Source: Candidatus Methanomethylophilaceae archaeon
GTDB lineage: Archaea; Thermoplasmatota; Thermoplasmata; Methanomassiliicoccales; Methanomethylophilaceae
Direction: 5' to 3'
Assembly: GCA_944321505.1 (NCBI GenBank)
Contig: CALULN010000004.1
Coordinates: forward strand, 1-54,011
Length of the DNA stretch: 54,011 nucleotides
The notes under the pieces were generated by a model. The model was not told the origin of the DNA. It did not search any database and saw nothing but the letters and a program-made list of their open reading frames with translations. The position numbers were made by a program, and so were the translations under genes. Of the stretch, positions 38,937 through 42,065 are shown piece by piece (position 1 is the stretch's first letter; each line of letters starts with the position of its first letter).

Positions 38937-41150
38937 TCAGACGAGCTCCGGCGGATCCCCCACAGCGCGGGACACGACCTCGACGAAGTTGACGGTTCTG
39001 GCTATGGACTCCTCCTCCCAGTCGCCGACCCCTCCCTCGGTGGCCATGTAGGTCTTGATCTTCGACGAAGTGCGGATGTTGGTGGCGCCCATCTCGGTGA
39101 CCTTCTTGGTCAGGTAGGACTCCAGCCACCTGCGGGTCGCCGCCACGGCGGTGTCGAGATGGGAGTAGTATGCCGCGCCCATGAACGGTATGTTGGCCAT
39201 GAAGCGGTAGTCCGGCGTGGGGGCGATGGTGGCCGACAGGGACTCGGCGATCTTGGATGACACGGCGCCCACGGCGTTGCCCACATCGTTGTTCTCCGGG
39301 AACACAACCTTGGCGTTCAGCCTCTCGTCCAGGTCCTCCATCATGAACCTGGCGGGTGCGCCGATGCCCACCACGGGCAGGTTCATCTTGGGGACGATGT
39401 CCATGGGGCTGCCGCGCTTGATGGATGCCAGGCGCCTCAGCATGACCTTGGACTCCTCGCCGTACCAGTGGTTCAGCTCGTCGTCCAGCATCTTGGTCAT
39501 CACCACCTCGCAGACCCTGGTCTTGATCTCCTCGAACACGGCGGTGGCCACCTGCTTCTTGGTCATGCCCATCCTGGCACCCAGTGCCTGCACGCCAGCG
39601 TCCGCGCCTGCGGGCACGCCCAGGGCGAACATCTTCTTGAACACCATCACGTCGGTTGGGGTGAGGGCGGACATCACGAGGACCTCCTTCCTCACCATGG
39701 ACGCCAGCTCGTCGTCGATGACCCAGAGGCCGTCCACCATGTCGATGATCTCCATCTTGTTGAGGGCGCCCTTGCCGTCTATGGCATCGAAGATCCTGCG
39801 CTCCTTGGATGTCAGCTGGGACACGTCCGCTGCCGGCAGGGTCTCGTAGTACTCGCTGATCTCGGAGTGGCGGACCCTCTCCGGCAGGTCGGGATGGGTC
39901 TCGGAGAACACGCACAGGGGCACCACCCTGTCGGGACCCAGCTGGAACCTCTGGCCCTCCAGGACCGAGATCCTGGAGTCGCCGCCCAGTGCCACGGTGT
40001 ACATGTCCACCGCCTTGACCCTGGTCCTCCACCTGCCGACGGACGCGCCCTCGTACTGGATCTGGGGGAACCCGCCCTCCATCACGGCGATGTCGGTGGA
40101 GGTCCCTCCGATGTCCACCATGACGCAGTCCTCGTACCCGGACAGGATCATGCCGCCCATGGAGCTGGCGGCGGGACCGGAGAGGATGGTCTCGATGGGG
40201 TGTATCCTTGCCTCCTCCAGCCCCATGACGGAGCCGTCTCCCTTGTACACCATGATGGGTGCGGTGATCCCCTTCCCGCGGAAGGTGCGCTCCACATCGT
40301 CGAAGAACTTGCTGACTATGGGGATCAGACGGCCGTTGAGGACGGCGGTCTCCGCCCTCAGGTCGATGCCGAGGGCGGCGGATAGCTCGTGGCCGGCGAT
40401 GACCGGCAGCCCGGTCATCTTCCTTGCCAGCTCCTTCACCTTCTCCTCCTGGGTGGAGTTGGCCACGGAGAACAGGCCCGAGACGGCGATGGCGTCCACA
40501 CCCTGGGACACCTCCTTGATGGCTCTGGTCACCTCCTCCTTGGACATGGCGGCGATGGCCCTGCCGGTGCTGGTGAACCCTCCCCTGACAGTCACCCTGT
40601 GCTTCTCGCCGAAGGTGACGTCCTCGTCCGGCTTCCATCCGATGAGGATGAGTCCCACCTCCCCGCCGTGGCCCTCCAGCACGGAGTTGGTGGCCAGGGT
40701 GGTGGATATGCCGACGAGGCTGATGTCCGACGGCTTTATGTCACAGGACGCGAAGACCGCGTCCACCGAATTGTACAGCCCTATGGACAGGTCGTGGTGG
40801 GTTGTGGGGGACTTCCTCTTGGCCACGACGGTGTTGTCGTCCAGGTCTATGATGACCGCGTCCGTGAAGGATCCGCCGGTGTCGATGCCCAGGCCGTACC
40901 TGGCAGTGCTGATCTTCTCGTCGTCCTCGCTGTATGTATCCGGCTCGACGAGGCCGACGCCCTCCACCAGCTTGCCCAGGTACCCGGAGACCTTCTCCCT
41001 CTTCTTCGTCTCGGCGTTGTACCTGGTGGTCTGATAGTACACATAGTAGGAGTTGCCGGACTTCTTCACATCGAAGCACTTGCGCCCGCCCTCCTTCTCC
41101 TTGCGGATCCAATCCTGGACCCACTGGTCGTATTCGGCCCTCTGAACCAT
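38937..41150 (-). CDS. Hydantoinase/oxoprolinase family protein with unusual N-terminal extension
   Basis: 737 residues. Residues about 85-300 match hydantoinase N (GLGIDTGGSFTDAVIID, an ASKHA-like phosphate loop) and about 300-660 hydantoinase A (MVDIGGTSTDIAVMEGG, the second phosphate loop). Family members hydrolyse N-methylhydantoin, oxoproline or acetone-like substrates with ATP. Residues 1-80 are an extra basic, aromatic domain (SYYVYYQTTRYNAETKKREK) that I do not place. Leaderless from a TATATATA box about 26 nt before ATG 41150. Between a CoM methyltransferase and a corrinoid protein, it may release a methylated amine or act as a corrinoid activase; both are inferred. Confidence 0.75.
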   Translation of the reverse strand: MVQRAEYDQWVQDWIRKEKEGGRKCFDVKKSGNSYYVYYQTTRYNAETKKREKVSGYLGKLVEGVGLVEPDTYSEDDEKISTARYGLGIDTGGSFTDAVIIDLDDNTVVAKRKSPTTHHDLSIGLYNSVDAVFASCDIKPSDISLVGISTTLATNSVLEGHGGEVGLILIGWKPDEDVTFGEKHRVTVRGGFTSTGRAIAAMSKEEVTRAIKEVSQGVDAIAVSGLFSVANSTQEEKVKELARKMTGLPVIAGHELSAALGIDLRAETAVLNGRLIPIVSKFFDDVERTFRGKGITAPIMVYKGDGSVMGLEEARIHPIETILSGPAASSMGGMILSGYEDCVMVDIGGTSTDIAVMEGGFPQIQYEGASVGRWRTRVKAVDMYTVALGGDSRISVLEGQRFQLGPDRVVPLCVFSETHPDLPERVRHSEISEYYETLPAADVSQLTSKERRIFDAIDGKGALNKMEIIDMVDGLWVIDDELASMVRKEVLVMSALTPTDVMVFKKMFALGVPAGADAGVQALGARMGMTKKQVATAVFEEIKTRVCEVVMTKMLDDELNHWYGEESKVMLRRLASIKRGSPMDIVPKMNLPVVGIGAPARFMMEDLDERLNAKVVFPENNDVGNAVGAVSSKIAESLSATIAPTPDYRFMANIPFMGAAYYSHLDTAVAATRRWLESYLTKKVTEMGATNIRTSSKIKTYMATEGGVGDWEEESIARTVNFVEVVSRAVGDPPELV

Positions 41151-41182
41151 GTGGGCCAGATGCCGAGGCCCGTATATATATG

Positions 41183-41236
41183 TACCGTATAATTCACGGC
41201 CGTTAACTTATACGGTAGAGCCGAAATTATACGGTA
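41183..41236. promoter_or_regulatory. Three copies of TTATACGGTA, one inverted
   Basis: TACCGTATAA (41183-41192), TTATACGGTA (41208-41217) and TTATACGGTA (41227-41236). The first two form a perfect 10-bp inverted repeat with a 15-bp gap; the third repeats the second 19 bp on. They lie just upstream of, and touch, the TATA box of the hydantoinase-family gene. Candidate operator for a dimeric regulator. Confidence 0.6.
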
Positions 41237-41423
41237 TCTGAGACTGAACGGAAGCTATAGCATAGTTGATTGCAACGATGATAAAACATCAAACGATTCC
41301 ATGCAACAGAAAATCACAATCATATCGGCAATCCCGTGAGAGGACAAGTGCGGCCGCGGGGGCCGCTGCAGAAGTAAGTGGGTTGTTGAAAAGGTTTGGA
41401 GGTATCCTGCGGATCCGGTGGAA
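41237..41423. other. AT-rich stretch downstream of the corrinoid protein gene
   Basis: No gene recognised. Together with the operator region it makes a 273-bp gap between the hydantoinase start and the corrinoid stop. Composition is visibly more AT-rich than the rest of the window up to about 41340, then returns to GC-rich. It contains the hairpin at 41350-41366. Confidence 0.5.
41350..41366 (-). terminator. Hairpin downstream of the corrinoid protein gene
   Basis: GCGGCC, GCGGG, GGCCGC lies about 58 nt beyond the corrinoid stop on the reverse strand; probable terminator. Confidence 0.4.
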
Positions 41424-42065
41424 TCACTGGATGCCGAGGATGCTGGCTGCGAGGTGGGATGCCTCGACTGCGTCGTAGGACCAGCCGTCGGCTCCGATCT
41501 GCTCGGCGAACTCCTTGGAGGTCGCGCCGCCGCCGATCATGGTCTTGATCTTGCCCTTCAGGCCGTTCTCCTTCAGGTCAGCCTCGCACTGCTTCATGCC
41601 GGCGAGGGTGGGGGTCATCAGGGTGGACTCAGCGATGATCGAAGCGTTGTTCTCCTGAGCAGAGGCGATGATGTCCTTGATGGGGACGTCCTTGCCGAGG
41701 TCGACGACGTTCAGTCCCAGACCGGTCAGCATAGCCTTCACGATGTTCTTACCGATGTCGTGGACGTCTCCCTCGACGACTGCGATGACAACGGTTCCCT
41801 TGGAAGCGGATCCGTCGCCCTGGAGCAGAGGCAGGCAGAGGTTCAGGCCCTGGTACAGGGTGTTGGCGGACAGCAGAACCTGGGGCAGGAAGTACTGCTT
41901 GGCGGCATACTTGTCACCAACGATGGCCATTGCCTTGGAAAGTCCCTCGAAGATGATGGTCTTGGCGTCGATGCCGTCGTCCAGGCAGGCCTGGGTGGCG
42001 TCCTTGGCAAGCTTCATCTTTCCGGTCACGACGATGTCGATAAGTGCGTCGAGCTTCTCACTCAT
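41424..42065 (-). CDS. Corrinoid protein of the MtbC/MttC (methylamine) type
   Basis: 213 residues: helical N-terminal cap domain (1-85) and B12-binding Rossmann domain (90-213). The lower-axial histidine motif is GDVHDIG with Asp100, His102 and Gly105. It carries a methyl group from a substrate-specific methyltransferase to the CoM methyltransferase. No MtbB, MttB, MtmB or MtaB gene is adjacent, so its substrate is unknown; methylamine or methylthiol-like corrinoid proteins look similar. Codon use is strongly biased, suggesting high expression. GATGAGGT precedes ATG 42065. The leader is long (about 70 nt). Confidence 0.88.
   Translation of the reverse strand: MSEKLDALIDIVVTGKMKLAKDATQACLDDGIDAKTIIFEGLSKAMAIVGDKYAAKQYFLPQVLLSANTLYQGLNLCLPLLQGDGSASKGTVVIAVVEGDVHDIGKNIVKAMLTGLGLNVVDLGKDVPIKDIIASAQENNASIIAESTLMTPTLAGMKQCEADLKENGLKGKIKTMIGGGATSKEFAEQIGADGWSYDAVEASHLAASILGIQ

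What the first reader, a model, noticed from the sequence alone, without database searches (positions are those of the whole stretch)
38937..42065. Methylotrophy module: CoM methyltransferase, corrinoid protein and a hydantoinase-like protein without any substrate methyltransferase
The trio has the shuttle proteins for methyl transfer but no MtmB, MtbB, MttB or MtaB. The middle gene is an ATP-dependent hydantoinase-family protein. It could hydrolyse a methylated cyclic substrate such as N-methylhydantoin, opening an unrecognised methyl source, or act like an ASKHA corrinoid activase replacing RamA. Either would be new for this order.
Basis: inference. Interest (0 to 1): 0.72.

Follow-up and report, generated by a model that had tools for sequence, protein, structure and literature searches.

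The report
Orphan hydantoinase-like ATPase in corrinoid module
A methanogen carries a vitamin-B12 protein, a methyl-transfer enzyme and an ATP-binding protein related to hydantoinases side by side; relatives show this is a real, conserved module, but the ATP-binding protein is not a hydantoinase (its obligate partner is missing) and does not replace the known activator RamA, so it looks like an unstudied, tightly regulated accessory of B12-dependent methyl transfer.

Summary
The trio is real: a corrinoid protein (41424-42065), a HyuA-like ATPase ("HYU", 38937-41150) and a MtaA/CmuA-family CoM methyltransferase (37780-38808), all on the minus strand. The genome has no MtmB, MtbB or MttB; its two MtaB have their own MtaC. 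In relatives the order is corrinoid protein-HYU-methyltransferase-RamA, next to the mcr operon. The family is in 130 of 147 genomes of the order, and 35%-identical homologues sit in bacterial corrinoid/MttB/RamA/DUF1638 clusters. HYU has an intact ATP site, the full HyuA fold, a family-wide GGGS-to-GGDS change and no conserved Cys for an Fe-S cluster. Best reading (0.45): an ATP-driven accessory dedicated to its corrinoid protein, distinct from RamA; rivals are methyl-donor activation and a regulatory role. Unexpected: in the window's clade HYU has an extra N-terminal domain, and 19 of 19 such genes carry the same promoter element (GTTATACGGTA core), against 0 of 108 without the domain. The bacterial homologue had already been named "HydA" in betaine clusters; no role is known.

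The parts
41424..42065 (-). corrinoid (B12-binding) methyl-carrier protein, 213 aa, MtbC/MttC/MtgC-like
   Evidence: Pfam B12-binding and B12-binding_2 over cut-off; NCBIfam pyl_corrinoid 176.8 bits, below its cut-off 215.3; DxHxxG motif DVHDIG (sequence); one of only three B12-binding_2 proteins in the genome
38937..41150 (-). HYU: HyuA-like ASKHA ATPase, 737 aa, no HyuB partner
   Evidence: Hydant_A_N 6.1e-31, Hydantoinase_A 3e-31; only Hydantoinase_A protein of the genome; full-length HyuA fold in the AlphaFold model
40911..41150 (-). extra N-terminal domain of HYU (residues 1-80), basic beta-sheet core, found only in the window's clade
   Evidence: 82% mean identity over ten genomes; no confident sequence or fold match; model pLDDT 77
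41184..41235 (.). conserved promoter element: copies of ACCGTATAA at 41184-41192 (+), 41208-41216 (-), 41227-41235 (-), i.e. -42, -66 and -85 from the HYU start
   Evidence: 3 of the 4 copies in the window, 0.03 expected; present upstream of 19 of 19 HYU genes that have the N-terminal domain, shuffles 0.11; 0 of 108 HYU genes without it
37780..38808 (-). MT2: methylcobamide:CoM methyltransferase (MtaA/CmuA family), 342 aa
   Evidence: TIGR01463 320.7 bits over cut-off 235.4; below the MtaA and MtbA equivalog cut-offs; nearest solved structure M. mazei MtaA 4ay7; Zn ligands H244, C246, C322 conserved

Best explanation
The genes form a self-contained corrinoid methyl-transfer module (corrinoid protein, HYU, CoM methyltransferase, with RamA alongside in most relatives) that ends at methyl-CoM. 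Shown: the gene content, its conservation, the intact ATP site and HyuA fold of HYU, the absence of HyuB, the presence of RamA. Inferred: HYU is an ATP-dependent accessory ATPase dedicated to its own corrinoid protein. It would use ATP binding and hydrolysis to drive a conformational or maturation/repair step on the corrinoid protein or its cofactor that RamA, the electron donor, does not do. It neither hydrolyses a hydantoin nor delivers electrons. Also inferred, less surely: no separate substrate methyltransferase is needed if the CoM methyltransferase does both half-reactions, as MtsA does with dimethylsulfide. In the window's clade HYU is under its own operator-like element.
For: The partner that stays constant over HYU contexts is the corrinoid protein, while the substrate enzymes differ: URO-D only in archaea, MttB pairs in Sporomusa, Halanaerobiales and other Bacillota, URO-D+RamA+DUF1638 in Nitrospinales and Geomesophilobacter. 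Other recurrent neighbours are reactivation or maturation factors: RamA; DUF1638, tied to B12 reactivation by genetics (PMC5764234); a CobW GTPase. Each module has its own HYU, and HYU and corrinoid-protein distances correlate (r 0.64, permutation maximum 0.12). ATP-site residues are invariant in 50 homologues while no Cys is. No HyuB. A protein annotated N-methylhydantoinase A is strongly co-induced with the betaine methyltransferase cluster of strain DCMF (PMC9768040).
Against: No direct test of any activity. RamA is in the same operon, so a second ATPase looks redundant unless its step is different. MtaBC, MtmBC and other well-studied systems work without HYU. Seventeen of 56 informative loci, many of them Pseudomonadota and Chloroflexota, have HYU with no corrinoid gene nearby. 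The r of 0.64 is partly shared descent. No MtsA or MtsB reference sequence could be compared.
Confidence: 0.45

Rival explanations
1. HYU is the missing substrate component: a HyuA-type kinase that phosphorylates a methylated compound, as acetone carboxylase and oxoprolinase phosphorylate theirs, making a better leaving group so that the methyl can go to the corrinoid. Which compound is unknown.
For: HYU has the complete fold of subunits that phosphorylate carbonyl substrates; the own genome has no MT1 for this corrinoid protein; each module has its own diverged HYU, as a substrate-specific part would.
Against: In bacteria HYU sits beside dedicated MttB-type MT1 enzymes; the metal-bearing HyuB-type partner that completes the chemistry in the known enzymes is absent.
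Confidence: 0.25
2. In the window's clade HYU is also, or mainly, an autoregulator: the extra N-terminal domain binds the GTTATACGGTA element in its own promoter and the ASKHA part senses ATP or a metabolite, in the manner of ROK repressors. Not exclusive of the other readings.
For: 19 of 19 genes with the domain have the element within 85 bp of the start, 0 of 108 without; shuffles give 0.11; the exact 11-mer in all held loci lies only at HYU promoters plus one other place; the domain's core is basic, pI 9.8.
Against: Domain and element arose in one clade, so it may be a single coincidence; the domain matches no known DNA-binding fold and only weakly a transposase N-terminus (hhalign probability 7%); another protein could bind the element; the own genome was not scanned as a whole for it.
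Confidence: 0.3
3. HYU is an ATP-dependent (N-methyl)hydantoinase that opens a new methyl source.
For: Pfam and fold: HyuA; N-methylhydantoinase is the best structural and sequence match among solved chains.
Against: No HyuB in the genome or in 146 of 147 genomes of the order or beside any homologue; GGDS in place of GGGS in 82 of 82; betaine operon context in bacteria.
Confidence: 0.03
4. HYU replaces RamA as the reductive corrinoid activase.
For: ASKHA ATPase beside a corrinoid protein; the Sporomusa betaine cluster has HYU but no RamA within 8 kb.
Against: RamA in the same operon in most relatives; two RamA in the own genome; no Fe-S site, no RACo domain, RACo TM-score 0.16-0.17.
Confidence: 0.04

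Closest known systems
HyuA / 5-oxoprolinase / acetone and acetophenone carboxylase nucleotide subunits (PDB 9h03, 6yra, 5l9w, 5svb)
   Same: Same full-length fold (TM-score 0.48-0.58 on the query, E 1e-25 to 1e-31), same ATP motifs
   Different: No HyuB-type partner gene; GGGS loop is GGDS in all 82 homologues; linked to corrinoid proteins; extra N-terminal domain in this clade
'HydA' (hydantoinase) of glycine betaine clusters in 'Ca. Formimonas warabiya' DCMF and Sporomusa (PMC9768040)
   Same: HYU homologue about 35% identical in a cluster with corrinoid protein, MttB-type enzymes, MT2 and BCCT transporters (L116); DCMF protein co-induced on betaine
   Different: Acetogenic bacteria with tetrahydrofolate as acceptor; the archaeal module has CoM methyltransferase and RamA and no MttB
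RamA / RACo
   Same: ASKHA ATPases that go with corrinoid proteins
   Different: HYU lacks the RACo domains and any Fe-S cluster; RamA is present as well
MtsAB methylthiol:CoM methyltransferase (Tallant et al. 2001; reported in the order, PMC4153887, PMC7824343)
   Same: Corrinoid protein plus a MtaA-family enzyme with no separate MT1
   Different: MtsAB is not known to need a HyuA-like protein; orthology could not be tested here
type 1 mlp gene clusters (PMC10418091)
   Same: MtaA-like proteins, corrinoid protein and RACE in one operon
   Different: Three MtaA-like proteins, and no hydantoinase-like gene is mentioned in that paper's text

Membership tests
ATP-dependent (N-methyl)hydantoinase / oxoprolinase | HyuA domains with ATP motifs | tested here: met
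ATP-dependent (N-methyl)hydantoinase / oxoprolinase | HyuB (Hydantoinase_B) subunit or domain | tested here: not met
   PF02538 in 1 of 147 genomes of the order, not in the own genome; 0 of 56 informative neighbourhoods
ATP-dependent (N-methyl)hydantoinase / oxoprolinase | GGGS loop as in the solved hydantoinase, oxoprolinase and Apc chains | tested here: not met
   GGDS in 82 of 82 homologues, GGGS in none
ATP-dependent (N-methyl)hydantoinase / oxoprolinase | hydantoin- or lactam-dependent ATP hydrolysis | not testable with these tools
   needs an enzyme assay
RamA/RACo corrinoid activase | RACo_C_ter ASKHA domain (PF14574) | tested here: not met
   the three genome hits lie elsewhere
RamA/RACo corrinoid activase | Fe-S cluster ligands | tested here: not met
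   no invariant Cys in 50 homologues
soluble CoM methyltransferase (MtaA/MtbA/MtsA) | family profile and His-Cys-Cys zinc site | tested here: met
   TIGR01463 over cut-off; HCC in 69 of 70 aligned sequences
MtaA or MtbA proper | NCBIfam equivalog cut-off | tested here: not met
   304.9 of 400 and 250.3 of 600 bits
MtsAB | orthology to Methanosarcina MtsA/MtsB; activity with dimethylsulfide | not testable with these tools
   no reference sequence held; no MtsA model appeared among the NCBIfam matches
methylamine-type corrinoid protein (pyl_corrinoid, TIGR02370) | family cut-off | tested here: not met
   176.8 against 215.3 bits; general B12-binding domains met
ROK-like autoregulator | N-terminal DNA-binding domain on an ASKHA protein | tested here: inconclusive
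   domain and promoter element co-occur but no fold match

The most novel reading that the evidence does not exclude
HYU is the missing methyl-donor enzyme: an ATP-dependent HyuA-type kinase that, with its corrinoid protein, activates an otherwise unreactive methylated compound, i.e. a new class of ATP-spending substrate activation for methylotrophic methanogenesis, kept in about nine tenths of the genomes of the order.
Probability: 0.15. Interest if true: 0.85.

Novelty: new variant of a known kind. Interest (0 to 1): 0.52.

Why it matters
Corrinoid methyl-transfer systems are described with four parts: MT1, corrinoid protein, MT2 and RamA. Here a fifth part, a HyuA-type ATPase without HyuB, recurs across a whole order of gut and wetland methanogens and in acetogenic and other bacteria, and is liable to be annotated as a hydantoinase. 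Knowing its step would correct that annotation in many genomes and could reveal either a new maturation/repair step of B12 proteins or an unrecognised methyl source for methane. The conserved promoter element gives a concrete handle on its regulation.

Tried and rejected
Hydantoin hydrolysis: rejected on the absence of HyuB. RamA replacement: rejected on co-encoded RamA and the missing Fe-S site. Gene fusions as a clue: the longer HYU open frames in L095, L101, L136, L066, L059 show no extra Pfam domain of note. N-terminal domain as a transposase-derived domain: looks similar by eye to transposase-like proteins in L008 and L009, but hhalign gives only 7% probability and the PDB fold search nothing, so not claimed. 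Regulon including sufC: one site lies 42 bp before the SufC-like gene at 52146, but it is not kept before the SufC-like genes of three relatives, so probably chance. The tree's HyuA outgroup had a very long branch, and a second row added as outgroup was not a HyuA at all (its sequence resembles an aspartyl-tRNA synthetase), so the root is not used.

Full report
Observation. Three genes run in the same direction on the minus strand: a corrinoid protein (41424-42065), a 737-residue HyuA-like protein, here HYU (38937-41150), and a MtaA/CmuA-family CoM methyltransferase, here MT2 (37780-38808). The finding's coordinates leave out the methyltransferase. The gaps are 273 and 128 bp, and each gene has an AT-rich stretch in front of it, so a single transcript is not shown. 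HYU is the only Hydantoinase_A protein in the genome. The genome (1.385 Mb, 95% complete) has three B12-binding_2 proteins: this one and two MtaC beside two MtaB. MttB, MtmB and MtbB are absent. A second MtaA-family enzyme lies on contig C2, so methanol use does not have to depend on MT2.

Conservation. HYU homologues occur in 130 of 147 genomes of the order. In a sample of 390 genomes of the phylum all 50 genomes with a match at E 1e-60 belong to this order. In close relatives the order is phosphoesterase, corrinoid protein, HYU, MT2, RamA, DUF169 protein, Lrp-type regulator, YcaO, McrB. In the window's genome the block RamA-DUF169-Lrp-YcaO-McrB is on another contig (L011), so the module once stood next to the mcr operon or was moved there in relatives. 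Of 70 corrinoid orthologues, 44 have HYU within 6 kb, 27 of 30 in the own family, with the three exceptions on other contigs (coordinates typed, and the HYU table was truncated, so this is a lower bound).

Wider family. A scan of named genomes found 35%-identical homologues in Sporomusa, 'Ca. Formimonas', Desulfosporosinus, Maledivibacter, Halanaerobiales, Nitrospinales, Geomesophilobacter and others. Among 56 loci with enough flank, 39 have a corrinoid/methyltransferase marker within 8 kb (corrinoid protein 36, URO-D 29, RamA 9, DUF1638 8, MttB 7), and none has HyuB. Sporomusa ovata locus L116 holds a corrinoid protein, two MttB-family enzymes, HYU, a betaine-type transporter and a glycine/betaine reductase subunit. 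By contig and gene content this appears to be the cluster drawn in PMC9768040 with a gene called 'HydA, hydantoinase'; that identity is an inference. [quoted passage not shown] I found no function proposed for it in the passages read. The DCMF locus found here (L119) is probably another copy. In Nitrospinales and Geomesophilobacter the set is corrinoid protein, URO-D, RamA, HYU, DUF1638. RamA-like and DUF1638 proteins were linked to B12 reactivation by mutant fitness (PMC5764234). Seventeen loci, many of them Pseudomonadota and Chloroflexota, have HYU with none of these markers nearby.

What HYU is. The AlphaFold model (mean pLDDT 85) matches N-methylhydantoinase, caprolactamase/oxoprolinase and acetone/acetophenone carboxylase nucleotide subunits over its whole length (E 1e-25 to 1e-31, TM-score 0.48-0.58), far better than sugar kinases or RACo (TM-score 0.16-0.17). 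ATP-site residues are invariant. The loop that reads GGGS in the solved relatives is GGDS in 82 of 82 homologues. No cysteine is invariant, so there is no conserved Fe-S site. HyuB, the partner subunit in the known enzymes, is absent from the genome and from 146 of 147 genomes of the order. So HYU is a HyuA fold without hydantoinase membership, and it is not RamA.

Mechanism. The known parts suffice for methyl transfer from a methylated corrinoid to CoM (MT2 has the His-Cys-Cys zinc site; the corrinoid protein has DxHxxG) and for reduction of the corrinoid (RamA). What HYU adds is inferred. The constant partner over contexts is the corrinoid protein, while substrate enzymes vary, and the other recurrent neighbours are RamA, DUF1638 and a CobW-type GTPase. 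HYU and corrinoid-protein distances correlate (r 0.64, permutation maximum 0.12), though shared descent contributes. The best-supported reading is an ATP-dependent step on the corrinoid protein other than electron delivery (0.45). The main rival is activation of the methyl donor by phosphorylation (0.25), which would also fill the missing MT1. The missing MT1 could instead be explained by a bifunctional MtsA-like MT2 (MtsAB is reported in the order: PMC4153887; PMC7824343), which could not be tested.

Promoter element and extra domain. The window's clade has an extra N-terminal domain of about 80 residues, 82% identical on average over ten genomes, predicted as a helix and a small basic beta-sheet, with no known fold match. 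All 19 distinct genes that encode it have one to three exact copies of ACCGTATAA/TTATACGGT within 85 bp of the start. Dinucleotide shuffles give 0.11 genes on average, at most 2, and the two commonest 9-mers of these upstream regions, found in all 19, are this element and its one-base shift. None of 108 HYU genes without the domain has it. The 11-mer GTTATACGGTA occurs in the held loci only at HYU promoters and at one other place. Domain and element go together, but in one clade only, so autoregulation by HYU is a hypothesis (0.3), not a result.

Novelty. In the papers held, no text combines hydantoinase with corrinoid methyltransferases in this order. The bacterial member has been drawn and named but, as far as I read, not explained. 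I class this as a new variant of a known kind: a corrinoid methyl-transfer module with an additional, unexplained HyuA-type ATPase.

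Noticed in passing
window 41184-41235; L019-L037, L068-L076, L089-L098, L180: Conserved element GTTATACGGTA (often as an inverted or direct pair) in front of HYU in every relative that has the N-terminal domain; nearly absent elsewhere in the held sequence.
   Followed up: partly
window 52104-52112: A single copy of the same 9-mer 42 bp before a SufC-like gene (52146); not kept in three relatives, probably chance.
   Followed up: yes
window 31721-35501: Methanogenesis core genes: Mmp3, McrC and the MCR activation ATPase AtwA (component A2) a few kb from the module.
   Followed up: no
L010 (G000 C3:122000-137000): CdhC and, by sequence, CdhD/CdhE genes with a RACo-type activator (C3:129931) and a MesB-like gene: an acetyl-CoA synthase cluster with its own activase.
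   Followed up: no
L008 9621-11165; L009 6110-7660: Two related transposase-like genes, 29% identical, each next to an mtaBC pair of the own genome.
   Followed up: partly
L057, L058, L059: A further HYU paralogue group (about 35% identical) lies near genes that look like MoxR/VWA ATPase and cobyrinate-synthase-like proteins; families not checked by profile.
   Followed up: no
L064, L126, L143, L155: A second archaeal module: corrinoid protein, URO-D, CobW GTPase, HYU, DUF1638 (with two small unknown proteins in L064).
   Followed up: partly
L124 1972-7847: A Methanomethylophilaceae contig with two HYU genes beside a corrinoid protein and a MttB-family gene.
   Followed up: no
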